Of a stretch of DNA of 64,000 nt, positions 35,833 to 54,794 are shown one piece after another. Position 1 is the stretch's first letter. The number at the start of each line of letters is the position of its first letter. The position numbers and the translations under genes are program-made. The notes beneath the pieces were generated by a model. That model was not told the origin of the DNA and searched no databases. It saw nothing but the letters and a program-made list of their open reading frames with translations. Source of the DNA: Byssothecium circinans (Eukaryota > Ascomycota > Dothideomycetes > Pleosporales > Massarinaceae); NCBI GenBank assembly GCA_010015675.1, contig ML976988.1:138806-202805 (forward strand), given 5' to 3'.

Positions 35833-38800
35833 CAGAGTAGTCAACAATCAACCAGGTCAGGCTTTCAACGTAGGCCTGGACTGATTGGTCCTCGGGACCC
35901 GAGAGGCCTGGACTGATTGACCTGATGGTGATTTGGGACCCAGATTGGTTGATTGATTGATGAAATTGATCCTCTACGTATACATTTTGTGTGTATGAAG
36001 CTATATAGCGTCATCCCACTCGGATATTCGAAATCGTTCCTGAATCTCCTGCTCTGAGAGCTCAACCCAGTCGTCGTCGCCCGAAGGAGCCCTGGGTGGA
36101 CTGAAACCGGCCTTCCGCCAAGCCCGTACACAGGTGATTGTGGAGATCAATTGAGGGCTCATTAATCGGCGTTTGGGCTCCATCATATCACCAACCTCAG
36201 AGAACATCCTCTCACAGGCACAAGAGGACGCTGGTATCGATAGGAGATCAATAGCTAGCTGAGAAAGGCAGGGGAACCTATCCTTAATAGATAGCCAGTA
36301 CCCAATAGGATCACGTCGATGCGAGTGATCCCCAGGCACGCCTAGTTCGTTGTGCCACCACTTCTTGAACTCATCATCGCTGCTGACGAGGGGTGCCGTC
36401 GTATCAACTCGTAGAGGCTTGGTAAGCCCGTCGGTGTAGTCGTCGATATTACTAACGTGCTTAGCTCTCTTGCGCGGAGGTGAGTTGACAGTGCTGTCAT
36501 CCTTATACTCGTTCCACAGCACCTTAAACTGGGCGTTTACAGTAATAAGCCAGTCGCTGTAATCCCCAGTCCAAGAGTTTACAAAGTAATACTTGTAATA
36601 CGGGTTAAGGAGCGTTGCAGCGTAATACACCGGCGTAGCGTCAAGTAGCCTGTAATACTTAGAGAGCTTCTTATAGGCAGCTATGATATTAATTTTGACG
36701 TGGTCCTCTGGGGCGTCAGCCTTATTAAAATTAACGTCCGCAAATCCCTTAACCAATCACTTAAAGTGGTTAAGGAGATACTTAAACGTTAGGTAGACTT
36801 CGTAAATAGCCCCATAACCACCGGAGGCCCCGCGACCTTCAAGTCTCTTTGTAGCCTCCTTTAAGGGCTGGAGGATTTAAATATACTGGTTGATTATATC
36901 CTAATCGCCAGCAGTAAGGCCTTTGGAGGGTGGAGTCGCGTCCCCCCAAGCCTCGCCCTGGGCGCGGGCTGACGCCTTATCCCTCAACGCTCTCTCCGCG
37001 CGGTGATTAGTAAGGGCGTCAATCAGGCGGTAGAGTTTAACGCCTCTCTTAATAAAGTTGAGATAGCTGTTCCAGCGGGTAACGACGGGTTTAATGGGTG
37101 CAAGCAGCGGGCCCGTCTCACCCTCTTCGCGGGTTGATAGTTGAAACTCATTAAATAAGTCGTATTGCTGAGGCGTTAATATTGAATAAATAACGTCGAC
37201 AAGGACGCCAATGGGGCCCTTCTCGCGCCACTTATGAAGATATTTCTCCTCCAGTCCTAATTGCGCGTCGTCGTTATTAAAGGAGTCCTTGTCAACTCTA
37301 AATATCACGGTTTAGCTAACCAGGTTAAATGAGTGAGGTAAGCAGCGGAGACGCCTCTTAGGAGCCATAAAGCCGTAATAGGTAGCTAGTACGTCAACGC
37401 AGGTGTCGTTATTTGTCGCGTTATTAAGCGTAAAGTATCTGATAGAGTTACTGTTAATGCTAAAGCTCTCTAGAGTCTTAATAACTACAGTAGCGATCCT
37501 CTCCCCAGTATGCGCGCTAGAGAGTTGAGGGAGGGCAATGGGCAGGTCGCAGACCTTGCCGCTACTATTAACGTAGTGGGCAACAAGCCCACAAAACGCG
37601 CTCTTACCGCCCTTCATAGACCAGCCGTCAAAACTAAAGTGGACCTTACTGAGCGAGCGCGACAGCTCAGCCTGCACCTGGGGCTGGAGATTTGTGTATA
37701 GCCTTACTAGAAAGGCTGAGACGCTGGCCTTACTCTTCCATATGGCCCGGTCGGCGTCTGGGTTGGCGAGGCGTAGGAGGTTGCGAAAAGCCGGCGTCTC
37801 TACCTCACGCAGAGGGTGATTATTCTCAGCCAGCCAGCTGACTACGGCTAGTTGAAAGCGCTGTTGATTAAAGTTTCCAAGGGCGTTAGAAACCTCTTAC
37901 GGTACATGCACGCCGCTAGCTATAAGAGACCTAAGAGTACGCTGCCCAGTCTCCAGCTGACGCTAGTTTGCAAGCGTACTTGGGCGGGACTGGTTATAGC
38001 CCCGAATCCTCTGCTCAATATGTCTCCACGCTGACGTCGTAGAGCTCGTCGTCTTGAGTATCCCGTTGCCCCTAAGGGCGCTGGATATATTGTGTATGTG
38101 GCAGTAGCGACAGACGAAGAATATACGCCTAGTGTTAGCGCGCAGCGCGACGCGGTAACCGTGATTATAAAGAGCTGACTTCTTATATAGCTGCGTCCGC
38201 AGAGGCTTCGTGTACGTAGAGAGACGTTGCCAGATAATCCCATCAAAGTTATCCGTAAAGCGCGCGTCAAAGTTGTCGTCTAAGCTGTCGGCAGCACCTA
38301 AGGACACTGTGGCACTAATGGAGGACGCCGGCGCCCTGCGGCCGGCGCGGGTAAAGGGCGTAGGTGTACAAGAGGGCGTTGACGACGCGTCCGAAGGCCC
38401 TGCGAGAGTAGGCGTCGCGTCCTGGCTGAAGGACTCAGCTGTACTGTTTTGGAGCTCAGTTTCAAAGCTCTGGGTGCTCTGTGAGTCGACAGGAACCCAG
38501 GGGGGCGACGGCAACCTGACTACTGTACTCAGGGTAGCCTGTTTGCCCTTATTGCGTAGAGCGCGCGGCATAGTACGTGTATGGGCGGGGGCGTCGTTAG
38601 TAGTCGGGCGGAAAATTGGGTCCTGAGTACGTATTACCCAATTAGGAAATCGCTTATTACACCCTCAACACCACGGAATCGTCTATATAGCTCATATTTA
38701 ACGTATTTACGGCTTCAAAAACCCGTCTTAGCACCTCTAAGACGATCAAACAAGATCAGGTCAATCAAGCGGATCAAGCGAAAAATCTCTAATACCTGAC

Positions 38801-39337: not shown

Positions 39338-42052
39338 TTATCTATTCCAATCATCATACAACTTACGTGCGACTAGTGAGATTTGGCACCACTTTTCCTC
39401 TTCAGACAGATCCTTCTTCTTCAAATCCTCACTAGGTGTCTTGAACAGCTTCTCCACGTCCAGTCTTTTGTCTTCCGGGTATTCATAGCCGAACTTCCTG
39501 AAAGCCTTTTCCATCCATTGGTATTTTTTGATGTTTTGAAGTGCCTTGTTATCCGCTGCGTTGGGGAAATGTTTGTTGAGATAACAATGATCGTACAAAG
39601 CGCCCATCCTAACACACTGAACGATGAGTGCCGCCAGGCCTGCAGCTAACGCGGTAGCTACCGACGAACCTGTAAGTGGCTGGGCATCATCTATGCTGAC
39701 CATGTCTCCTTCCTTAGTCTTCACGTTCACGCCAGGGAGTATGAAGTCCACGTTCGTCAGACTGCCCGTTCGGACGTTTATGTTCCCGTTGTGATCAGCT
39801 GCTCCAATCTTGAAGATCTCCTTGATGCCACAGCCGAAAGGCCAGTAGTTACTGAGCACGTCGGTGCTTTGCTTCCCAATATCTGGGGCAGAGCAAAAAA
39901 TCAAAATGTTTTCCTCGTGCGCTTCCTTTAGAGCAGTTCGTAGCCGTTCGAAAGACTTCGAAGTTTCCTTCGTGGCATCTCTCATCTGTTCGATCGTCCA
40001 GGACATGGAGATGATATCGAACTTTCGCTTGACGGCGTGTTCTACTGCCTTCAAAGTGTTATTACGGATCAAAGATGATTTCAAAGCCAAAAGTAGTCCG
40101 TGTTAAGAAAGTTGAGCTTACATCTGCAGCGCTTTTGGCTGTAAAATATGATAACATATTTCCCTGCTGAGGAATCACCTCGAGCTTGCAAACATATATC
40201 TTGACTCTGGGGCAGATTCGGCTGATTAGATACGCCATTTTGGTGCCATGGCCTGTTTCCGAGCCATGGAAGGGCTGCGAATCGTCTTCGATGTCTCTAC
40301 CTGGGTAACCACTGCTGAAACTGTTTCCAGATGTCACGTTTCGGGCAATGGTAGGATTCAGGAGGTCAACACCGTCGTCAATCAGTGCAACCGTAACGTC
40401 CTTTTTCAGCTCATTGGGTAGGCTCGAATTCTCTGAGAAGTTCTGTGCGAACTGTGGTGGAAACATCAACTTGGATATACCTGCGGCAAATCCATCCATG
40501 ACCTGGAGCCATCTATCAACGTCAATAGCGTTCGCCAATTCTCCGTGGGCCGCGGACGGCTGTGAGGGGAGCTCTTTCTCGCTGATGATGATCTTGGTTC
40601 CCTGGTGACTATCAAAGGATAGAGCTCGTTCCTTTTCCTTGAATTGCTGGGATAGTCGCTGATGAAACTGCTTGAGGTCTCGTTTCCAGCGACTGGTAGA
40701 GTTCAATGCTGCCTGGGAAGTTTTGTTAGCTCACAGATCTCAAATATGCGACGGTAATTTGCTTGTAGAAAGGGCGTGCGTACAGTTGGCTCGTGCAGAT
40801 GAATTTTCCTGAGCGCTGGTAGTTGTACCAGCCCGTACTTAGGGTCACCTCATGCTCGGAGGATGGCATTGTTGCCACTCCACCAGAGGTGTAACTCTTG
40901 CAGGTTCTTTGAGCCCTCACATACTGTTCGTATGACTTGAGGGCAAAGATCAATTTTTTGCCAGTCCAGTATCTCGATGCTGAACCTGCAAAGCGATTCC
41001 TCGATCGACTCATCGCTGTGTGGAACTCCGTCCTTGTCTCTCACTGTTACTTTGATGATGTTGCTTACTTTCTTCCCTGAAAGCCATTCAAAGAATTTTT
41101 GAACATCTCTCCTTCCTTTTCCGTCGAATTCTCCTTCCCTAGGAGGGTCGCGGGGTGGAATGGGTACCAGTTCTGGAATGTCGAAATCAACGTACAGCAG
41201 TACCTCGTCGAATTTGAACCCTGCATAATTCTCTTTGAACGTCCTAAAGTTTACTCTCTCTCCCTTCTTCAACTTAGTTGCCGGGAACTTGAAGCGTATG
41301 TTTTTCTCTGGCCATAATCAGCATGTGGTGTTGACGTGGTAATGGTTAGGATTAGATACTTACCTTCCAAATTGGTGCCGTACAAAAACTCCACAGCAGA
41401 ATCAGGAGTCCTTTCGGCGCACTCGGACGTTGGTCGGAGCAGCGTAATACGTACAAGAGCGGCAACGGAGGAATAGATATTGCGATACATGGTCCGACCA
41501 AACGCTGCCTGTATAAGTGCCTCCTTGATGATAACACCTCCAATATCATGCCCGATGAGGATGATATCTGCATTTTTGGGTCTGTCAAGCTCGCAGAGTG
41601 CATCAAGAAGCCTTACGGCTTGATCTCTGATGCCCGGGTGGACGAATATGCTCGTGTGATTCTCAGCAATATGGTAGTTGAATGCGGATATTCTTGTGCT
41701 CGGGTGTTTCATTGCCATTTTCTCGATGAACCATAGCTTATGGTCCTCATCTTTGAGAGGAAACCGCGGCCGGGTCCACCGAGTGCCGTTCAGCCCGTGT
41801 ACGACGATGACACTAGAATTGTTGATAGCAGTTAGTATTGAGAATTAACTTTTTGAGTCCCTAAGAAAGTCACATATGAACTCACTCGGCGCGGCACTCT
41901 CCATTGGTATGATTCCTAAGTCTCCTGAGGCCTGTTTCTCTCCCGTCTCTACTAGAGCAGAACACCCTTCTCGAAAAATGTCTCCGAACAACATCCCACG
42001 ATCTCTTCGCAGATAACGCAGGAGACAGGTCGGAGTCCGCTAATGTAGCCAT
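39338..42052 (-). pseudogene. Chimeric gene: alpha/beta-hydrolase N-terminus joined to subtilase (S8) C-terminus
   Basis: Five exons (42052-41886, 41812-41364, 41307-40784, 40712-40122, 40048-39338) join in frame to 814 codons, introns 56-73 bp. The first part is a lipase-like alpha/beta hydrolase of the kind that heads fungal NLRs: DVIVVHGLNG, then LIGHDIGGVIIKEALIQA, where Asp takes the place of the nucleophile Ser (GxSxG). At about 41451 it switches to a subtilase: SAVEFLYGTNLE, ELHLWWSGNNAILR, then S8 catalytic residues Asp in VALIDDGVD, His in TGHGTKMA and Ser in LTGSSVATALAAGLAALI. This subtilase family normally starts with an ankyrin domain, which lies at 43861-45222 on the other strand. 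An in-frame TGA at 40850-40852, probably a former Trp, cuts the peptidase off. Mechanism: inversion, listed separately. Confidence 0.82.
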
Positions 42053-42405
42053 TTCATCATAGATACCATAAGGTGGAGTTGAGCTATGCGATGAGAATAG
42101 AATGCATTGTCGGAATGAGGAAGGACAAACCGAACCGCATCCCGCCTCAATCAAAAATCCCGCAGCTGGACCGGTGGAGTTACAGGGAGTACTGGTCGGC
42201 CAATATACATGGATTATATTATACACCACATGAATCAATTGGTGTGAAGTGGCAAAATCTCCAATGAGATTGCGTCCATAGAACGTGATACACAGACATT
42301 GAAATGAGTACTAGTAACCGAAAAGCTATGCCCACACCACCTAAGAACACTGAAGCGGTGATCACCTTCAGCTCTCCGAGCGTATCGAAAATCCATGCCA
42401 CCTCC
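42053..42405. other. Intergenic, about 350 bp
   Basis: Upstream of the hydrolase start and downstream of the middle gene, inside the inverted segment. No gene. Confidence 0.6.
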
Positions 42406-43264
42406 CTAAATGGCAAGGGAGTCTTGGGAGGGAATACCGGCAAGCGATTTCAGCTCCACTTTTCCGAGGTTCTGAACATCGTAATCCTGCAGCTTATTTG
42501 TTGGCAGCCGCCGCGCAGGGTCAAACAAGATAGGATCGTCCTTTGGTGTACTGAAAGCAGCCTCGATCTTGGTGAAGAGATCCGCTTTGATCTGCATTGT
42601 CACTGTGCCTGGAACTGGTTCCTGTCGTCCCGCTTCAATAAGATCGCTGATCGAAGGTGTGGTATAACACCACTCTTTACGGTGGCGTTTTCCATGAAGT
42701 TCCACGATGCGCTGTTCTTCGCGCCCCAGATGCGCCCGTTCAGATCCATCGAGGCACGTACGCGGGTTGTATCCGTCGTCACCCTGTCGATCACCTTCTC
42801 CAACTTGAAATCACCTCCCAACTGAACACCTGCGACACCACTGATATTGATCCCCGCACCTTGTGTCACCTGCTCGCGCTGCTGTGTAGACTGCAACTGG
42901 AAGAATCCGTCGGGATACATCGCATACACCTCCGGGTCCTGCGGTCCAATTTGGTGTGATCCGAACTGCATGACAACCTCAGCCTCCTTGATTCGACTAG
43001 CAATGCGATTAGGCGTGAATCGAAAATCGACGACCAGCAGGGTACATTCATCGTCACAGTCATCCGAGAAATACCCATGTGCAATATCTTTAATTCGCAG
43101 CGAACGTCCACACGGCCTTTGCGTTCGATAGCGTTCTCCCTCTCAAAAGGATTTTTCGGGTCATTCTGCGTATGGAATGCGGAGCTCTCTCCCAGAGGGT
43201 ACAGGGCAATGTCGTATGAGAGCAGGTCTTCGGCGAGGCCGGACACAGCTAGATTGTCCACCAT
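42406..43264 (-). pseudogene. Beta-rich hypothetical protein of the NLR cluster, two frameshifts
   Basis: Fungal family of unknown function. The ATG at 43264 opens MVDNLAVSGLAEDLLSYDIALYPLG and reads to ERKGR. Near 43102-43106 one base is missing and the protein continues in the next frame as KDIAHGYFSDD, TLLVVDFRFTPNRIASRIKE and QFGSHQIGPQDPEVYAMYPD. A Gly/Val-rich amphipathic stretch follows (GAGINISGVAGVQLGGDF), then RIWGAKNSASWNFMEN. Near 42601-42608 a second base is missing, and the last 60 residues (MQIKADLFTKIEAAF...LAGI) are in yet another frame. Neither gap fits an intron. The order resembles fungal proteins that I recall next to NLR genes; that link is inference. Once divergent from the subtilase and co-directional with the NLR, if the inversion is undone. 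Start may lie in an earlier exon. Confidence 0.6.
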
Positions 43265-43860
43265 TTCTGCGAGGTGATCTGTCAGTTGGGAACGCGATAA
43301 AAATGAGGCGTCTGGTTATCAAGTTAGATCGTCTATCCATGAAATCTGCAAAATTGTGGGACATACGCGGACTCATTGCTGTGAGTTTCTGTGTGAACAC
43401 AACTGGCTTCTCGTTGCTGATTTGTTTCTTGAGAAGTTGGGAGCGCGACGGCTCTACAGGCTTTTATCTGTATGCGAGGCGTGAAATTGTCGAGCGGTTC
43501 ACAGCTACGCAGAAGAAGTCTGACGCGGAACCAGGGAAGTGGAATGCCAGAACGTGCATATCGACTGAGAAGGCAAGACGCCAGTAGATCTCGAAGAGGC
43601 AGGTAACTCGTAAAAAACAAGGCTATGCGAGCACAAATTATCAAGCCCAGGGTCGGACGACATGTAAGCTAACAGAATGAGTTCGGCGGAACCACAGAGT
43701 GCCTTCCGTCAGTACTTTGCTTCCAAGTTTTGTCCTAGTAATTTGTCCTAGTATAAGCTCGCACAAACAGTATTGTCATCATTTTTTCATTTGATCACCA
43801 AGCAGATCTCCTTAGAAAGCACACAGCCCTCCAAGCCAAGTGGGGAAAGGAGCCAGCGAC
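43265..43860. other. Divergent upstream region, about 600 bp
   Basis: Separates the middle gene (minus) from the ankyrin gene (plus). Could contain a small 5' exon of the middle gene at about 43300-43380, but no convincing splice pair was found. CTTAG/AAGCACACAGCC-type leader precedes 43861. Confidence 0.4.
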
Positions 43861-45327
43861 ATGAATGACAACAACAATTTTTCTGAAGATGAAAATCACC
43901 ACTCACAGCACGACAATTCAAGGTCTCAAACGGACTCAGAAGGAGAGAACAGTCACAAGCCGAGACGGAAGATCGGAGGGGACGATGATGAAAGTGACTA
44001 CTCGTCTGAAAGCTCTGGCGATGCTGTCGGCATTCATGATCTCAAAGATCTAGATGCCTTGATGAAGGCATTGATGGCAGCATTCTATGATCTCAGGGAC
44101 TCCCTCGACAACGATGTATCCAGACAAAAGAACTTCACACAACAACATCAGGCCGTCCTCAAACCACAACGGCAAATTCTGCAGAATCAAGCCGATCCTC
44201 AAGACAATATCCTGTTTAAGATGGCTTTGCAGGGACCTGGATCAAGCTCAAACGCATGGCTTGTCAAAAGAATTGTCGAGGCGCATCCCGAAATGTTAGA
44301 GGAACTGGACGGAGAGATTGGCGGACCGCTGTTCGCTGCAGTCACAAATAAGACGTTGTGGTTCATTGATGCTGTGTTGGATAGTGATATCAAAGAGGAC
44401 GACTTGCAAGCAGCGCTTGGGCCTGTATGGGAAAAGACTTCCAAAAACTGCGTTCAGAATGCGAGCAAGAGGAATCTACCGGCACCAATCACCATCAAGA
44501 TGATCGAGAAAGCATCTAAACAAACACTTGCAGCCCAGGATTCGGCTGGGTGTTCGCCGCTGCATACTGCCGTCGAATATACCAGGTGCACACGGTCACA
44601 CGAAAAAGTGATCCTGAAACTTATTGAATGTGATAGCGGGGCATTGGATTGCATCACAGGAAAGCCTGATTTCTATTCCGTCTATCAACATCATGTGAAG
44701 ACTCGACGAACTTTTCTTGAGGACGCTGCGGAGAAGAAAAAGACGGCGGAGAAGGGCATAGGAGGGGCTTTCGCGAGCGAAGTCGGACGATTGCAGGCGC
44801 AGAAGCTTGAAGGAGATCCTACCAGACATAAGAAACAATTGGCGGATCCTTGGGAAGCTCGTGGAGATGGCCATTTCTCAAATTCGTTCAATCGATGCTT
44901 GACGGATATGAATCTTTTGGATAGAGATCCTAGGTCCTTTGCCGAAGATATAATGCCGAACGAGATGGAGTTGTTCATCAAGACGGGCGAAGTCAAGCTT
45001 CCAAGGGAAACAAATGCGCCCCAGGCAATCGAAACAGGCCATCAACGTACCAAAGTAACTGAAGAGAGGACCAAAATAGCCACCTCTTCAGATATTTATG
45101 GGAAACGGAAAGCCCGAGCAAAATCCAAGGCAACAAGACCCGCTGGTGGAGGCAAAAGGGGAGAGGAGCCTTCTGAGGAGGTTGCGAATCAAGTTGCAAA
45201 GGCGCTCAAGTTACATTACTTGCGTTCTGTGCTTCTTTTTCCACATAGGTATTGCCGCATTGCTAACAATTCAAATTTTAGGCCTTCCTCGGTTGCCCAC
45301 ACGAATGCAGCGATGGTACACTCTTGA
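43861..45327 (+). CDS. Ankyrin-type N-terminal part of an S8-peptidase gene, cut off by the inversion, 488 aa
   Basis: The first ATG is 43861. Residues 1-65 are acidic and Ser-rich, probably disordered. The middle has ankyrin-like segments: GGPLFAAVTNKTLWFIDAVL and AAQDSAGCSPLHTAVEYTR, then DFYSVYQHH and a Lys/Glu helical stretch (AAEKKKTAEKG). These are the usual front half of fungal ankyrin-subtilase proteins. The conserved LKLHYLR near residue 455 should be followed by the FLYG block of the peptidase, which is instead found at 41380-41410 on the other strand. After LHYLR the frame reads foreign sequence and stops at 45325-45327. A weak GTGCTT donor at 45229 with the TTTTAG acceptor at 45281 could splice it in frame to the NLR exon that follows. 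Whether a product is made is unknown. Confidence 0.7.
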   Translation: MNDNNNFSEDENHHSQHDNSRSQTDSEGENSHKPRRKIGGDDDESDYSSESSGDAVGIHDLKDLDALMKALMAAFYDLRDSLDNDVSRQKNFTQQHQAVLKPQRQILQNQADPQDNILFKMALQGPGSSSNAWLVKRIVEAHPEMLEELDGEIGGPLFAAVTNKTLWFIDAVLDSDIKEDDLQAALGPVWEKTSKNCVQNASKRNLPAPITIKMIEKASKQTLAAQDSAGCSPLHTAVEYTRCTRSHEKVILKLIECDSGALDCITGKPDFYSVYQHHVKTRRTFLEDAAEKKKTAEKGIGGAFASEVGRLQAQKLEGDPTRHKKQLADPWEARGDGHFSNSFNRCLTDMNLLDRDPRSFAEDIMPNEMELFIKTGEVKLPRETNAPQAIETGHQRTKVTEERTKIATSSDIYGKRKARAKSKATRPAGGGKRGEEPSEEVANQVAKALKLHYLRSVLLFPHRYCRIANNSNFRPSSVAHTNAAMVHS

Positions 45328-48300
45328 GAGATGAACTCTATCAACTGTTCAGATTGAATGAAACCGCCGATTTCACGCTTTCGTATTCACTTGCTTGTAG
45401 CTTAGCTCAATCGGCACTGGAGATCAATGAAGACTTCCTACGTACTCAGCTCTACGACTCTGTTCCAATATCCATTGTCATCTCAACCGCCGAGGAGGCG
45501 TCTCAACGTGTACGTATGGGATTTTCATATGTATTTGTTCAAATAGAACGCTCAAATTCTAACAAAACGTCCTAGATCTTTTCAGATCCAATACCATGGA
45601 CTACGGCTGGGAGCGCACGAAAATGGAGTACTCTCAAATGTCCAGTTCCACATTGGCAACTTGCACGAGGCTTCGAGCTTGTTACTACTCCAGAACAAGC
45701 TCGCTGTATGTCAACCTGCTTCACGTTAAGTCAGCAACTTCTAACAACATTCAAAAATAGCCATGTTACAAACTCTTCGAGCGTTCACATCGACAAAAAC
45801 CGATCCTGTCCAGCCATTTAGTGCAGACTACGATACCAGCATCAGCAGAAACCCGCAGATTGTGGATTGGACATCCGCTAGCGGCACCGCAAGCCTCGTT
45901 GTTCAGACCGTTTCTCCAGTCAAAACAGCCAATTCTATCTGCAAGTACATCCAAGATTCAAAGATTTCTTCGTATTTCCTTTTTGATTTCCAGTTTTATC
46001 ACTGGGATTGCCGATTCGACTCAGTCAAGTCACTCTTGCGTTCGCTGCTCAACAGCTATTGGATGCAAAATCTCGAGGTTAAAACGATTCAGGGTAAATT
46101 GATCAAAGTTCTTGAGGAACGATCTAAATCCTGCGATTTATATCACGAACTGAATTTAGAGGACCTCTGGGCTTTGGTTCTGGAAGTTGTTCGTCTGACT
46201 GGTCGCATTGATATAACGTTGGTTCTACTTGATCTGAACGAACGTATTCGATCACATAGGTGGTTACTGGACAAGATAACCACTGTTTGCAACGGATCGG
46301 ATCTCAAATTCCAAGTGCTCTTCGTCACCGGACACGTTCCATGCCCTCTCTTCAAAGAATACGACATCGCAACTACGGCAATCAGCACGAAGAATATCAT
46401 CGATGGTACAGTTTCATCCAATGCGACCGCCGAAAAGGACGATGATGAGAAAGATGAGGATAAATCAAGCGAGATCTCCCCCCACGAGCGTGTCGAAGGA
46501 TATACTACGAGCTTAGTTATGCTGGAAATGCTTCGAAACCAACCACGACTTCACACGCATAGTCGTCGGATTGCACAAATCCTCCGAGACTGCGCACCTG
46601 ACAAGGACCTGCAAGCCATGATTTCAACCTGGCTAGTGAGTTCGAATTTGCACTTCGACAACGTCAAGCTCAGCTCCTTGCTTGCCGACCTCTCTCCGAT
46701 AACACCACAAAAGATTTTCCAACGTATCCTAGCCACTGTGGTCGTGGAACAGGGGGAGCCGGCCCTCGAAGCTCTTCAACTCGTGACCAGCACTTTCCGA
46801 CCTCTGAGCATCCATGAGCTTGAGATACTACATAGCGCCAAGTTCCATCACCGTGGGGCGAATAGTGTCATATGTACGGACAGTGCAGGCCTTACATCTC
46901 TTTTTCGGGGCTTGCTCGTCGTTCGCAAAAACGAGGTGAAATTCGGACATCCTCTTCTTCGAGAGTTCTTGTCGCCAAAGGTTTAACGGTTGGAAAGCAA
47001 AATCGAGACTCGAAAGTCCACTCACAGATAGCGAGGCTGTGTTTGGAATGCATTCAATCTATGACTCTCGAAGCCTTGAGCAATCACCACGGCGTTCCAA
47101 AATGCCCTCCAGCACCTGAGTCACGCTTGAGCTTCTCCGGATACGCTATCAAATACTGGCCTCAGCACGCCCAACTCGCAGGATCGCAATTATGGGAAGC
47201 CGATGAGCCTACAATGAGTTCCTTCGGAGATCTATCCCTCCTTGGCAGTTGGGCAAAGGCTTACTGGACACACTCTGGCCGCATGCTCCCCGAGAACGAT
47301 GATCTTCCCACCGCAACATCAATTTTGGCAGAAAATGGTCTTGGAGATGCTGTCGATAAGGTTCTTTCATTGCATCGGAACTGCAGATCCTTCACTCGAG
47401 AATTTATCACTTCTCTTGAGGCAGCCGCAAAAACAGGAAACAAGCAAGTCCTCTGGCAACTAGTGAAGTCGGGTGTTCCACCTGGGGTAAGCTTCGACGA
47501 AGCGATCCTAGCTGCAGTTGATTCAATGGACTCAGAAACTACGCACATGCTGCTAGAGAAGGTGAAACGGGAACCGGATCTATTCGTTGACCCTACAACA
47601 GCTCTTCACCGAGCCGTAATCCTGGGACTGCACGATGTGTTAGATCGCATCGTTACCTTTATCGCGACCAAGAACAGTACACTCGATACAAGGAAGAGCT
47701 TTATGGTGTCAGCGTGCGGAGGAGGCAACTTGGCCATCGTCAAGTTTCTTCTAGACCGAAAGGCTGATCTTCATCTTGGGAACATTGAGGAGGAAGAAGT
47801 TTCCAAGTGGCTGAGCCGAGCCTGCATATACGGACATCACGAAGTCGCCAATTATCTGGCGAAAGAAACCGTATCTTTGGCAACAGGACCAAGTGAGCAA
47901 GATTAGCCCGGTGTGATAAGACTGCGGATGCTCTACGCGCTCGAAGTTGCGATCACTTTCGGGCAGTCGCAGACTTTGAAATCTATGCTCGACAAATTTG
48001 TGCATTACGACCCTACTTTCCTAACTCACAATGATCTGGTGACTCACTCAATTCGCTTCAGAAGACCTCATTGCTGTAAAGTGATGATGGACTACCTCTG
48101 CGAGTCACCGGATTATCGTGAATCCTTGAAGGAGCAAATGAAGCTTCTAATGGACCTTGCTATAAACTTAGCAGACCTAGCCATCATCGAGATTCTCATC
48201 GTTTTCGGTGCAAAGCTTAATCCATGCGCAGCCATTTTGTCTGTGATCGACTCTTCCGAAAATATCGAAGCTTGGATCAACTCTTTCTTTCGAATGGATG

Positions 48301-50317
48301 CACAGGCTTGGTCGTCTCTTGCGTACTATCAGAGTGCTCTCGACAATGCTCTACTCTTATATGCAGCCCCGAAAGGAAAGCTGGAACTCACGAAGCTGCT
48401 CGTTTCGAAGGGGGCCAACATTGGAGCTGAGGACTCTGCAAAGCGTACTTCGTTATACATGGCTACAATGAGAACACATACGGACGTTGCGGAAGCGCTT
48501 GTTGAAGCTGGGGCGAATCTCAAAGTGCGACGGAACGGGGAGTACAGCTTGTCACCAGTCGATGTCGCAGCCGGATATTGCAGCCACAGACTTTTGTCCT
48601 ACATGCTCGCCAAAGCCGGCGACGTCCATGCACTCTCGGCAGAAACCCACACGCCTCTCGACCTTGCAGTGCAGCAGAATAAGGTAGACTCAGTGGGAGT
48701 ACTTTTAAACCACACGCCAGACTTGAAGCCTCCCGAGAACAGGGCATATGTGTTGCACGCAGCAGTTTACAACGGGAATCTCCGTATCGTTACCATGCTC
48801 TTAGAAGCCGGTGCCGACCCATGCTACAAGTCCATAGGACTCCCGTATTCTCTTCTTTGTGTTTGGAACAACTCGATCAAAATCCTCGAAAAGCTCGTTT
48901 CCTATGGAATGCAGTTAGAACAAACATCTCTGAAAGGTAATCAGGCACTACATTGCTTGAGTTCCAAGACAGACTTACCGGTCATCAAGTATCTAGTTTG
49001 TCGAGGTGCCTCACTAGAAGCAGTGAGTCGTATTTCCATGACTCCCCTCACTTCGGCTATACGCACCAACAATATCAAGATTGCAGAGTATTAGATCTCC
49101 AAAGGAGCAAACGTAGTTTCGGGAGTGGGCAATGAGGGAACACCTCTTCACACAGCCTGCCAGGTCAGCACACTGGCGATGGTGAAGTTACTGGTCAGCC
49201 ACGGTGCAGATCCGGCAAATGCTGTCGAAAGCATACATGGAACACCATTCCAGGCGGCCTGTAAACGGAGAGAAGGCACTGCCAAGAAGAGAATCTTATC
49301 GTATTTACTCGAGACCGGTAAGATCACTGCCGAGAAAAGCAGTTCCTTGTTGGGCCCGAACATCATCACTGCAAGTCTGCACACTGAATCGAGCGTGGTG
49401 GAGAAGATGCTCGATCTCAAAGAGAATAGTAGTGATAAGGTACGGAGAGATATCGTCAACATTCAAGGCAACTACGGACAAAGGCCGGTACACTTCGCGT
49501 TACGGAGCTCAATCAAGCATGTAGACGTTCTGCATGGGGCAGGAGCAGATATGTTAGCAAGGGATCTCATTAAACAAGGGCCTTTGCACTTCGCCGTGGC
49601 AGGAGGAAGACTAGATCTTGTCCAGTATGTGCTAAAAGAGAATGGGAACCTCGTCCATGAGGAAGATAGCCATGGTTGGACTCCACTGCTATGCGCTCTT
49701 AGAGTGGGCTGGAGAGCGCATTTAGGCAGAAGGTTATATGTAGTTCAGGAACTGCTTCAACGCGGCGCTAGTAAAATGGTTCAAGGAAAGGGTGCCAAAG
49801 GGAGAGTGTGGACAGCATTGCTGATTGCGAGTTATCATGGGCTTGATCAGAAAATCATTGATCTCGTCACTCCGACAACCGAAGAAGTCAGAGCAAGCGA
49901 AGATCGTCAGTTCTGGGAGAATCATCTCGCGCAGAAGCATCGACAAGCTCGTCGAATTGAGGACTCCCACTGCAACGTTTGTCTTACGGTAAGTTCACTC
50001 TCCGAACCCAACGCTTTCATTTTTCATCATCAAGTCCTGACTAGCAGCTACCCTAGATTACATACGGGTTTCACTATGTGTGCGATGATTGCAAGGATAT
50101 CAATTTCGTGCTCTGTTCGAAGTGTTATCTGTCTAAGGAGGACGTTCATCCTGACCATGATTTCTCGCCTAAATTAGAGGACGACGAGTATGTATCGGAA
50201 GACGAAGAGAGCGATGCTTCACAAAGCGAGAATGGAGAGGAGACAGATGCTCTAAATGGTGGAAGTGAAGTGGTCAGTCAAAGTGATAGCAAACAGAATG
50301 TACAAGGTACGCCCTAG
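45282..50317 (+). pseudogene. NLR-like gene body: NB-type domain, ankyrin repeats and ZZ zinc finger, broken
   Basis: Downstream part of an NLR (STAND) gene whose hydrolase front now lies at 41453-42052 on the minus strand. Exons 45282-45509, 45576-45705 and 45761 onward, with introns of 66 and 55 bp, then a last intron 49989-50056 (68 bp). It starts AFLGCPHECSDGTLLRDELY, the end of the hydrolase module. The NB-like part (RNPQIVDWTSASGTASLVV, then SYFLFDFQFYHWD) lacks a GxxxxGK(S/T) P-loop. A winged-helix-like region ends FGHPLLREFL. About 15 ankyrin-type units follow (47400-49950). The C-terminus is a ZZ finger: CNVC, CDDC, CSKC, HPDH. Lesions: missing base near 46971-46990, TAG at 47904-47906, TAG at 49092-49094. 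Incompatibility or non-self recognition is the expected role of the intact family. Confidence 0.8.
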
Positions 50318-51489: not shown

Positions 51490-52196
51490 TCATACGAGTT
51501 TCTGTCCTTGAAACAAGAACCTCAAGTCCTCCAGTGCATCTTCCGAATGTCCAGCTCTAGCTTCCATCGTACTGAACGTTCCAACATATAAATGAAGAGT
51601 TCCCAAAGTGCGCACATCCCAGAGGCCAAGTTCTTGTTGTAGTTTCCGCACATGCCTCGCCTGATTTGTCATCATACGCAAATATCCCGGCATGAGCTGC
51701 AAACTAGACGATGGCCCATATTCCGTCCAGCCCATCGCAACCTCAATCTGACGGTGCTTGTGTAGGAAAGTCTTCAGTATAGGCCAAATAGACGCGTTGG
51801 ACCCTGGAACTTCCATCCATTGTTGACTTTCTGTGCGTTCCAGCCCAAGAGCGACGGGAACTTCTGCATGGTTGTATTCAAATCCCGGGTGTACGTAGAT
51901 TTGGAGGTGCGTAACTGACGTCTGTGTGGCTAGAATATCGAGAGTGTGGCCGACATATGCCGCAAGATGACGACCGGAGTCCCATCCAACTCGGAGGACA
52001 TTGGGCTTTTTTCCTACTGATGGGGGAGCCCTACCCCATTCCGTCGACTCTTTACCACCAGGCAATGCCTTCCGCCGAATGATGGGCGGACCGTTGCGGT
52101 CAATAAACGGTGTACCCATTACAACCGTCTTGATGCACTGCGCATTGTGCACTCCGATGGACTTGAGGAAGTGTGGAATCTCCAAGTACATATCTA

Positions 52197-52246
52197 CAGT
52201 AATGCGTCAAAAGTTCGTTCCGCTAAGCGAGAAACACCAAAACGCG
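52197..52246 (+). repeat. Mariner left inverted repeat
   Basis: About 50 bp, mirrored at 53424-53475 with about 85% identity and a 2-bp indel. Confidence 0.9.
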
Positions 52247-52279
52247 TGAACGCGTCAACACCTTCAACCCACCACCACA

Positions 52280-53169
52280 ATGCCTCAATCACGTCGGTTT
52301 GGTACAGAAATCTCTGGAAATGCCCGTAAAAGGCCAAATACTACTCCCCTTGAGCGTGAGCAAATCATTGCTAAGTGGCAAGCTGGGTGTACGACGGGAG
52401 AGCTAGCTAATAAGTTTGGCCGCACCACGCGTGGGATACGCAAAATCATCCACCGATTTTCACAGCACCACACCACTAAGGATTTGCCTCGCTCTGGCCG
52501 TCCAAAATACCTCTCACAAAGAACAATTAATCGAATTAAATACTTTATACGAAAGACACCAAAAATCGAGTACAATACGCTTATGTGTGAGATGGGATGG
52601 GACCCCCCTACTACTGACCCCTCACGCTCTACCATCTATCACGCGATTAGAGAGGTTGGATTACGGAACTACCGATGCTCTAAGCGACCCAAAATTAACC
52701 GTGCGACGGCTATTTTAAGGCTTAAGTGGTCCAGAGAGCATCGCAACTACCCATGGAGGCGCCGCCCGTTTCGCTTCTCAGATGAGTGCTCTATTTAAAA
52801 GGGCTCTGGGGCCAATACTGAGTGGGCCTTTCGATATCCTGACGAGAGATGGAGTCACAAGATGGTTACTGAGTATACTAAGAGCCGTCCTCCTCAACAA
52901 ATGGTGTGGGCAGAGGTGTGGCTTACTCGAAGGGGTGGTGTACGAAGGAGTGAATTAGTGATTATAAAAAGAGACCCACAAGCCGCCCACCAAGGATATA
53001 CGACCCAGAGCTATTTAGAGGCTTTAGAGGAGGGCTTATTGCCCTATTACTAACCAGGAGAGATCTTTATGCAGGATAACGCTCCTATCCATACGTCGGG
53101 GGCAGCAAAGGATTTCTTGGAGAGACACGGCATTTGGGTCACTGAGTGGCCACCCTATTCACCTGACCT
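52280..53169 (+). pseudogene. Tc1/mariner transposase, two in-frame stops, 3' end in gap
   Basis: ATG at 52280. The N-terminal paired-type helix-turn-helix region includes KWQAGCTTGELANKFGRT and IRKIIHRF, followed by LPRSGRPKYLS. The catalytic core starts with Asp in RFSDECSI; the second Asp is in MQDNAPIHTSG, then WPPYSPDL leads into the gap, where the third acidic residue should lie. The frame is continuous from 52280 to the gap apart from TAA at 52796-52798 and TAA at 53051-53053. Both look like Gln CAA codons changed by C-to-T, as expected from RIP. Not functional as sequenced. Confidence 0.9.
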
Positions 53170-53384
53170 NNNNNNNNNNNNNNNNNNNNNNNNNNNNNNN
53201 NNNNNNNNNNNNNNNNNNNNNNNNNNNNNNNNNNNNNNNNNNNNNNNNNNNNNNNNNNNNNNNNNNNNNNNNNNNNNNNNNNNNNNNNNNNNNNNNNNNN
53301 NNNNNNNNNNNNNNNNNNNNNNNNNNNNNNNNNNNNNNNNNNNNNNNNNNNNNNNNNNNNNNNNNNNNNNNNNNNNNNNNNNNN
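53170..53384. other. Assembly gap, 215 N
   Basis: Unknown bases inside the mariner transposase, a typical place for a repeat-induced gap. Any frame crossing it is unreliable. Confidence 0.99.
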
Positions 53385-53423
53385 GCTCTATATATATAGC
53401 CTCAATTTGGATGGGCGTTGGGT

Positions 53424-53475
53424 CGCGTTTTGGTGATTTTCGCTTAGCGCGGAACGAACTTTTGACCTAGTACTG
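53424..53475 (-). repeat. Mariner right inverted repeat
   Basis: About 52 bp, reverse complement of 52197-52246 with small changes. Confidence 0.9.
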
Positions 53476-53922
53476 TACCTGATCAAACCTGAATACATTG
53501 TCTCCGTAGAACATCGCTCGTGTTTCGGCGTTGACAAGCTTGCAAGTTCGGAGGAGGCTCCTACTGGTGGCGGACACACTCCTGAACTTAGGCCCAGGTA
53601 TGGACGGCCCGAGGGGTCGAATGACGAGGCCCTGTACAACAACATATTGGTAAATTCGACGGCGGATTTCCAGTGGGAGGGTCAAGAAGGAAGGAAGCGC
53701 TGGGGCCGTTCGTTTGATCATGCGCTTTCGTTCTCTGTACAGGACAGGGAGGCGTTTGAACGGGTCAAGCTGCGTGGGGGCGTACATCTGATATACTGGA
53801 ACAAGCTCGCCATCTTTATCCTTCACCCATTCCCGAAGGCGGTCCTTTGGTGCAGGTTGGACCAGACGGGGACCTTCGATAAGGTACTCGAGAGCACGCT
53901 TTTTGCTTCGATGGTGACTCAT

Positions 53923-54794
53923 TGTGAGAGTATAGAAGTTTTATAGTAATCGAAAGAATCGGACAGTGGGCGTGGTTGCGGTGGGGCGAGGACCCGTTGA
54001 GGGATGGCCCATGAGGGCAGATTATATACTTAAGGCAAGGTAATACAAACGCGAAGTGGCTTGGTAAACGTTGCTGTCATCGAACTTCGCTTAGTCATTT
54101 TACATTGTGTAAGTAAGGAAGTCTTTGGCGTAATGGTAAACACCATTGAGGTATCCTGGTATCTGCGACTCACTTGCTCCATATAATCCGTAGTATAGTA
54201 GGCTCCTGACGTTATCTGTTTCTTTCTTACACAGGCTAAGCCACCATACTGATACAACCATCTCTGATAACTCTCGACATCTGAAAGTCATGGTGTGGTT
54301 TGTAGAGTTGCGATGCATCGACCCAAAGGGTGACCGGCAATAACAGAGTCATAGACCAAAAGGAAATCCTGTTCAGTAATAGATGTACGGTATTCCGTTT
54401 GGATTCGTGTCGTACCTCAACATCCCCTTCAGCTAGCTCTTTGTAACCTTTTGACCCTTCAAATGGTCCCATAGATGAGACACTCTCATATATACGAGAC
54501 GGAATTGCTATGAGGTGAGTGCTCATCTGATGGATTGTAGGATCCTTCATCCATCGTACCTACCAGACTTACCGTATCTCGAGTCTTTGAGAGAAAACTG
54601 TGCGAGAATAAGGCAACTGAATATGCGGCTCCTTTCGCGTGCATTGGTGAAGTCATCTTAGAAGACGGGAACTAGAGAGATGCTGCGTTTCACACTAGCC
54701 GAACCGAGCCGACGCGGCTTCAACATGCCCCTCCAGCCCAATCCAGAAGTTTAAAGTCGCCTCATTTCACCAACAACCACACTACCGCGCAGCA
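53923..54794. other. Intergenic, about 870 bp
   Basis: Divergent upstream region of the split gene and HEM3. No gene. Longest frame, 104 codons on the minus strand at 54236-54550, has no recognisable features. Confidence 0.5.

What the first reader, a model, noticed from the sequence alone, without database searches (positions are those of the whole stretch)
39338..50317. One 3.8-kb inversion swapped the 5' halves of an NLR gene and an ankyrin-subtilase gene
The minus gene is hydrolase-front plus subtilase-back; the plus gene is ankyrin-subtilase-front plus NLR-back. Undoing an inversion of about 41451-45224 restores both usual domain orders (LHYLR next to FLYG; hydrolase next to FLGCPHE) and rebuilds a 61-bp intron from a GTACGT donor at one join and a GCTAAC branch plus TTTTAG acceptor at the other. 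The joins share CGT. The left chimera stays in frame across the join. This is a direct example of domain shuffling between two defence-type genes by inversion, or an inversion polymorphism.
Basis: partly seen in the sequence, partly recalled or inferred. Interest (0 to 1): 0.9.

Follow-up and report, generated by a model that had tools for sequence, protein, structure and literature searches.

The report
Inversion broke a fungal death-gene trio
In a filamentous fungus a 3.8-kb stretch flipped inside a three-gene set that looks like a cell-suicide switch (a sensor, a protein-cutting enzyme and a pore-like protein), swapping the front halves of the first two genes, and all three genes now carry further damage.

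Summary
Confirmed. In Byssothecium circinans one inversion (joins 41449-41451 and 45223-45225) swapped the 5' parts of a hydrolase-NLR and an ankyrin-subtilase. Of 120 listed subtilase homologues, 104 carry the window's ankyrin front ahead of its subtilase back; of the 119 other than the window's own deposited chimera, none carries the hydrolase half. Both NLR homologues found carry the hydrolase half directly before the NLR back. A paralogous locus in the same genome has the un-inverted order. New working genes are unlikely: the subtilase back, the NLR back and the gene caught inside carry stops or frame changes. The larger result is that inner gene (42409-43266, minus). Relatives sit beside, or fused to, this subtilase family, and two AlphaFold models of relatives match hemolysin/leukocidin-type pore-forming proteins. 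So the locus was probably a three-gene cell-death cassette: SesB-like NLR, ankyrin-S8 protease and non-gasdermin pore-former candidate, a variant of known fungal gasdermin-S8 clusters. The inversion rests on sequence comparison without reads; function is inferred.

The parts
39338..41450 (-). Subtilase (Peptidase S8) back half, 'A', with an in-frame TGA upstream of the S8 domain
   Evidence: PF00082 1e-12 for the piece 39338-40102; D, H and S catalytic motifs present; TGA at 40850-40852; 106 of 106 long homologues match it
41449..41451 (.). Left inversion join (shared trinucleotide)
   Evidence: NLR homologue alignments end at 41452; the 301 bp across the join have one match in the genome, themselves
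41452..42052 (-). Hydrolase (SesB-like/DUF676) front half of the NLR gene, 'B'; first intron 41813-41885
   Evidence: DUF676 8.2e-05, 22.6 bits against a cut-off of 20.3, for the frame 41269-41844; intron; matches N-termini of P0131 and P0132
42409..43266 (-). Third gene, 'C', inside the inversion: all-beta pore-former candidate, with two changes of frame
   Evidence: fold of relatives:
43861..45222 (+). Ankyrin front half of the subtilase gene, 'D' (454 codons open); the frame runs on to a stop ending at 45327
   Evidence: 104 of 120 listed S8 homologues carry it N-terminal to A. Pfam finds no ankyrin model in D itself; P0002 and others carry Ank there
45223..45225 (.). Right inversion join (CGT)
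   Evidence: the 301 bp across the join have one match in the genome, themselves
45226..45281 (+). Remnant of the split NLR intron (branch GCTAAC, acceptor TTTTAG)
45282..50317 (+). NLR back half, 'E': end of the hydrolase domain (FLGCPHE), NACHT-like region, ankyrin repeats, C-terminal stretch matching the ZZ-like end of P0131; change of frame near 46980, TAG near 47904 and 49092

Best explanation
The ancestral locus was a head-to-head cluster: an ankyrin-subtilase gene on the minus strand, then on the plus strand gene C and a hydrolase (SesB-like)-NACHT-ankyrin NLR. Two breaks, one in the coding part of the subtilase just after its LKLHYLR motif and one in the intron that splits the NLR's hydrolase domain before FLGCPHE, were rejoined after the segment between them flipped, with 3 bp of shared sequence, consistent with end-joining. 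That one event made both chimeras and turned C round (shown by sequence comparison). The chimeras are most likely dead (inferred from stops and frame changes). Before the break the cluster most likely worked as a cell-death module: the NLR senses a trigger and activates the ankyrin-S8 protease, which cleaves and releases the C protein, a hemolysin-fold pore-former, in the manner of fungal gasdermin-S8 protease pairs (inferred, about 0.42 likely). The confidence below is for the inversion.
For: Subtilase: the search scored the 7997 candidates sharing most words and found 331 at E<=0.001, 120 listed. Of the 120, 104 hold both D and A, all 104 with D first; 15 hold A only; the one with hydrolase B is the window's own deposited chimera P0001 (one of the other 119, P0027, is a paralogue from the same genome). 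By tblastn 106 of 106 long homologues match A, 102 match D, and none matches the hydrolase front 41453-42052. NLR: 2 of 2 homologues carry B ending at residue 143 or 131 and E starting at 144 or 132 (in P0131 only the last 42 residues of B match); neither carries D. Same genome: contig C13 reads E, B, C (minus) then D, A (plus), the mirror of the un-inverted window, and its exon joins ...LKSRYLR... to ...KKFLYG.... Contig C20 also has D-A collinear. Module: by consecutive locus tags on the same contig, C relatives are next to S8 homologues in Piccolia ochrophora and Fusarium poae; NLR and S8 tags are two apart in Fonsecaea erecta and Gaeumannomyces tritici; C is fused N-terminal to the ankyrin-subtilase in P0049 and P0076. 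C fold: Foldseek and VIA-align give hemolysin/leukocidin-type proteins for two models. Clustering of fungal gasdermins with S8 proteases is reported in PMC10197012 and PMC12881547 (passages read).
Against: No reads or second isolate were available. For the module: the two AlphaFold models are only moderately confident (mean pLDDT 59.9 and 64.7, pTM 0.60 and 0.68), rest on 9 and 8 largely shared sequences, and leave a central stretch below pLDDT 50. Foldseek TM-scores are low, about 0.2-0.3. Sequence searches of C against Pfam and PDB found nothing. A test for unusually amphipathic strands was negative: 0 of 6 sequences exceeded the 95% point of their shuffles. Only 10 C-family proteins were found against 331 S8 hits, and of the 8 C relatives outside B. 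circinans adjacency by tag was seen for 2; for the rest no tag was given or no matching tag was in the list. The genes between the NLR and S8 tags could not be read. Only 2 NLR homologues were found.
Confidence: 0.93

Rival explanations
1. Assembly error: the joins do not exist in the organism.
For: Only one assembly is held and no reads could be checked.
Against: Each 301-bp stretch across a join has one match in the genome, itself; no inverted match of 10 bp or more exists between the 600-bp surroundings of the two joins; no N lies in 39338-50317. Misassembled inversions normally need repeats (general knowledge).
Confidence: 0.04
2. Adaptive domain shuffling: the chimeras are new working genes.
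For: The left chimera is in frame across the join; a 774-aa model of it is deposited (P0001); S8 catalytic motifs are intact.
Against: In-frame TGA after 357 aa, which the deposited model avoids by dropping a stretch that P0002 keeps as coding; part of a hydrolase domain is left on each side; the right frame stops 33 aa after the join; the NLR back has two TAG codons and a change of frame.
Confidence: 0.05
3. The present order is ancestral and the usual genes arose by the opposite rearrangement.
For: None found.
Against: The usual order is in 104 of the 119 listed S8 homologues other than P0001 (the other 15 show the back only), in 2 of 2 NLR homologues, and in the C13 locus of the same genome; one break cuts a single hydrolase domain.
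Confidence: 0.01
4. Two independent rearrangements rather than one inversion.
For: Not excluded by the joins alone.
Against: One inversion also explains the orientation of gene C and the reciprocal intron halves.
Confidence: 0.02
5. Gene C is a fungal gasdermin or another beta-rich protein, not a hemolysin-type fold.
For: Fungal gasdermins are usually next to protease genes, mostly S8 (PMC10197012, passages read); the models are shallow.
Against: For the second model 43 Foldseek matches reach E<=0.001, 42 of them pore-forming proteins of this type by title and one (6u3y) with a title that names no molecule; of the 50 VIA rows listed per model, 45 and 44 are of this type by title, the rest being 6u-entries whose titles name no molecule. 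No gasdermin is in the listed rows, which does not exclude one.
Confidence: 0.3

Closest known systems
Fungal gasdermin (HET-Q1, RCD-1) and S8 protease (HET-Q2-like) clusters
   Same: Small predicted pore-former next to a multidomain S8 protease with ankyrin repeats; two- or three-gene clusters (PMC12881547, PMC10197012, passages)
   Different: The small protein is predicted to have a hemolysin-type fold, and a SesB-like NLR is a third member; homology to HET-Q2 was not tested
Fungal NLRs with SesB-like (alpha/beta hydrolase) N-terminus
   Same: DUF676-type hydrolase in the window, NACHT-like (NPHP3_N) region and ankyrin repeats in homologues
   Different: Clustered with an S8 protease and gene C; His-Asp-x-Gly stands where many hydrolases have the serine nucleophile (consensus recalled)
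Hemolysin/leukocidin-type beta-pore-forming proteins
   Different: No sequence similarity found; fungal, presumably intracellular; a secretion signal was not tested
Chimeric genes made by inversion breakpoints (general knowledge)
   Same: Reciprocal fusion of two genes by one inversion
   Different: Here both partners belong to one gene cluster and both carry further damage

Membership tests
Reciprocal inversion | Undoing one segment restores both partner genes as found in relatives | tested here: met
Reciprocal inversion | Outgroup locus with un-inverted order | tested here: met
   C13 locus
Peptidase S8 | Pfam PF00082 above cut-off and D/H/S motifs | tested here: met
   48.4 bits against 21.8; motifs
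SesB-like fungal NLR | alpha/beta hydrolase N-terminus | tested here: met
   DUF676 22.6 bits against 20.3
SesB-like fungal NLR | NACHT/NB domain | tested here: inconclusive
   No Pfam match in window 45745-46983; NPHP3_N in homologues P0131 and P0132, which align across E
SesB-like fungal NLR | C-terminal repeats | tested here: met
   Ank_2 and others
Fungal gasdermin-protease cluster | Gasdermin-fold effector | tested here: inconclusive
   Structure searches listed hemolysin-type matches at the top; a family that is not listed is not excluded
Fungal gasdermin-protease cluster | Neighbouring or fused S8 protease | tested here: met
   C13 and C5 loci, locus tags, fusions
Hemolysin/leukocidin beta-PFT | Fold | tested here: met
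   Predicted models of relatives only, moderate confidence
Hemolysin/leukocidin beta-PFT | Sequence homology to a described family | tested here: not met
   No Pfam match at E<=1 for P0125, P0126, P0123; no PDB sequence match at E<=1 for the profile
Hemolysin/leukocidin beta-PFT | Oligomeric membrane pore | not testable with these tools
   needs biochemistry

The most novel reading that the evidence does not exclude
Filamentous fungi hold a conserved three-gene cell-death cassette in which the executioner is not a gasdermin or HeLo protein but a hemolysin-fold beta-pore-former, released by an ankyrin-subtilase under the control of a SesB-like NLR; B. circinans is losing it by inversion, core deletion and point decay at three loci.
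Probability: 0.42. Interest if true: 0.82.

Novelty: new variant of a known kind. Interest (0 to 1): 0.6.

Why it matters
It gives a clean case of one inversion making two reciprocal chimeras in an immunity-type cluster, with an un-inverted paralogous locus in the same genome to compare, and shows that the deposited chimera is likely a dead gene. More important, it exposes a small uncharacterised protein family that occurs beside ankyrin-subtilases and a SesB-like NLR and is predicted to have a pore-former fold, which makes an alternative to gasdermin-type fungal cell death directly testable.

Tried and rejected
Repeat-mediated inversion: no inverted match of 10 bp or more between the breakpoint surroundings, against a null whose longest match is usually 8-10 bp; one direct 10-bp match exists. 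RIP as cause of the stops: dinucleotide indices of A, B, C, D and E are not RIP-like (usual thresholds recalled). Amphipathic-stem test of C relatives: negative. Sequence searches of C relatives in Pfam, PDB and NCBIfam: nothing relevant. In one search a loose filter reported 6 matches on the 'hydrolase front'; reading them showed that all lie on gene C, from two proteins. Two further matches of S8 homologues on E were single short stretches in the ankyrin region. In the VIA-align and Foldseek lists no gasdermin appeared; that does not exclude one. Paper searches for a hemolysin-type effector in fungal NLR or S8 clusters listed no such report by title and start of abstract (listings only; most subscription papers are not held), and term searches inside PMC10197012 and PMC9815663 gave 0 occurrences of hemolysin. 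Searches for inversion-born NLR chimeras in fungi listed none (listings only). Other isolates could not be compared.
Full report
ORIGIN. The window lies at C12:138806-202805 of a 48.4-Mb, 109-contig fungal genome. Proteins from its own loci are deposited under Byssothecium circinans: P0001 (the left chimera, 774 aa), P0122 (gene C, 201 aa) and P0121 (the C gene of contig C13, 100% over the query, whose contig length equals that of C13). The listed contig length for P0001 and P0122 (1,242,750) differs slightly from C12 (1,241,189); I did not resolve why.

THE JOINS. Piece A (39338-41450, minus) is a Peptidase S8 back half; B (41452-42052, minus) a DUF676/SesB-like hydrolase front; D (43861-45222, plus) the front of an ankyrin-subtilase; E (45282-50317, plus) an NLR back with ankyrin repeats. 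The joins share a trinucleotide: plus-strand ACG at 41449-41451 and CGT at 45223-45225. Next to the left join is a GTACGT donor in the hydrolase, and after the right join a 56-bp remnant ends in GCTAAC...TTTTAG. The 301 bp across each join match only themselves in the genome, and no inverted match of 10 bp or more lies around the two joins.

HOMOLOGUES OF THE SUBTILASE. I searched with the left chimera as it stands, so that natural hydrolase-subtilases could have been found. Of 7997 scored candidates, 331 passed E<=0.001 and 120 are listed. Of the 120, 104 match D and A, all with D first; 15 match A only; one, the window's own P0001, matches B and A. Of the 106 proteins of 800 aa or more, 104 carry D. 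In 24 of the first 40 listed proteins a simple pattern finds LKLHYLR (or a close form) followed within tens of residues by FLYG or FLFG, the two motifs that the inversion separates; 16 of 40, P0001 among them, do not fit that pattern. On the DNA, 106 of 106 long homologues match A and 102 match D; none matches 41453-42052. Some alignments run past the joins (37 past 45225, 7 past 41450), by short chance similarity.

HOMOLOGUES OF THE NLR. Searching with D followed by E (present order; residues 1-1060 scored) gave two proteins among 7565 candidates: P0131 (Fonsecaea erecta) and P0132 (Gaeumannomyces tritici). Both carry B and E, with B ending at residue 131 or 143 and E beginning at 132 or 144; in P0131 only the last 42 residues of B match. 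Neither carries D (a D match to P0131 at E 0.23 lies in its ankyrin region). On the window these alignments end at 41452 and resume at 45285.

A SAME-GENOME OUTGROUP. Protein searches of the genome showed subtilase-front and NLR-back relatives about 3 kb apart on contig C13. Reading that locus gives, left to right, NLR back, hydrolase, gene C (all minus), then subtilase front and back (plus). That is the mirror of the window with the inversion undone. The C13 copy is itself damaged: its hydrolase region appears decayed after the part that corresponds to B (by eye), and its C frame holds one TAG. On contig C20 the subtilase is collinear (minus), and its start (homologue residue 125) lies 32 bp from ankyrin repeats of an NLR read the other way (homologue residue 1238): the core of the cluster appears lost there.

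STATE OF THE GENES. The left chimera meets TGA at 40850-40852 after 357 aa. The deposited 774-aa model avoids it by leaving out a stretch that P0002 keeps. The D frame runs through the intron remnant to a stop ending at 45327, 33 aa after the join. E has TAG codons near 47904 and 49092 and a change of frame near 46980, which could also be an unusually short intron; one further exon boundary near 45745 I could not model. Gene C has two changes of frame. Only B and D are open over their length. So the shuffled products are most likely not working genes. Whether decay preceded or followed the inversion cannot be said.

GENE C. The inversion contains a third gene. A profile of its largest open piece with the C13 exon found 10 proteins: two from B. 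circinans and eight others, none with a precomputed Pfam domain. By consecutive locus tags and equal contig length, P0125 (M1833_000695) is next to S8 homologue P0113 (M1833_000696) in Piccolia ochrophora, and P0127 (FPOAC1_003800) is next to P0079 (FPOAC1_003801) in Fusarium poae. For the other six no tag was given or none matched the list. The NLR tags AYL99_04045 and RB598_005240 are two away from S8 homologues AYL99_04047 (P0023) and RB598_005242 (P0048) on the same contigs. I could not see the genes between. In two of the 120 listed S8 homologues, P0049 and P0076, the C domain is fused in front of the ankyrin-subtilase (51% and 65% identity to P0125); these could be true fusions or merged gene models of tandem neighbours. 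A distant C relative (24% identity, E 4e-8) and a subtilase lie together on contig C5, with no NLR match in 19.8 kb.

HOW IT PROBABLY WORKED. In fungi, gasdermin genes are mostly clustered with protease genes: about 63% with S8 proteases by PMC10197012; by PMC12881547 the proteases often carry ankyrin or other repeats, a subset are NLRs, and such pathways are often two- or three-gene clusters (passages read). SesB-like domains are among the common N-termini of ascomycete NLRs (PMC9815663, passage). By analogy, the NLR would sense, the ankyrin-subtilase cut, and C, freed, form a pore. Shown: the cluster at two loci of this genome, the domains, adjacency by tag in four other species (C-S8 in two, NLR-S8 two tags apart in two), and fusion in two. 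Inferred: activation order, cleavage, pore.

NOVELTY. My paper searches listed no report of a hemolysin-type effector in such clusters, nor of inversion-born fungal NLR chimeras; these were listings, and the library lacks most subscription papers. The inversion is an ordinary mechanism in an unusual place; the C family in this cluster is a new variant of a known kind.

Noticed in passing
window 36001-38000, minus: hAT-like transposase remnant in several frames (by eye); the 2-kb block with the most RIP-like dinucleotide indices (TA/AT 1.5, (CA+TG)/(AC+GT) 0.87); 52001-54000 is borderline (thresholds recalled).
   Followed up: no
window 52250-52798, plus: Tc1/mariner-like transposase fragment to the right of the NLR (by eye), so transposon remnants lie on both sides of the cluster.
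   Followed up: no
L012 5900-9600 and L013 1500-2200 (contig C20): Second paralogous cluster whose core appears deleted: subtilase start and NLR ankyrin repeats lie 32 bp apart, head to head; the subtilase also holds an in-frame TAG.
   Followed up: partly
L023 4689-5696 and 7165-9219, minus (contig C5): Distant C relative with an open 335-aa frame beside a subtilase; no NLR match in the 19.8 kb read.
   Followed up: partly
L021 8290-9214, minus (contig C12): Fragment of a subtilase of the same family elsewhere on the window's contig.
   Followed up: no
P0049 and P0076: C domain fused N-terminal to the ankyrin-subtilase in Nemania abortiva and Mollisia scopiformis.
   Followed up: yes
window 41452-41844, minus; P0131, P0132; L010 8541-8849: Hydrolase domains of this NLR clade read His-Asp-x-Gly where serine esterases have His-Ser (the esterase motif is recalled), so they may be non-catalytic.
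   Followed up: no
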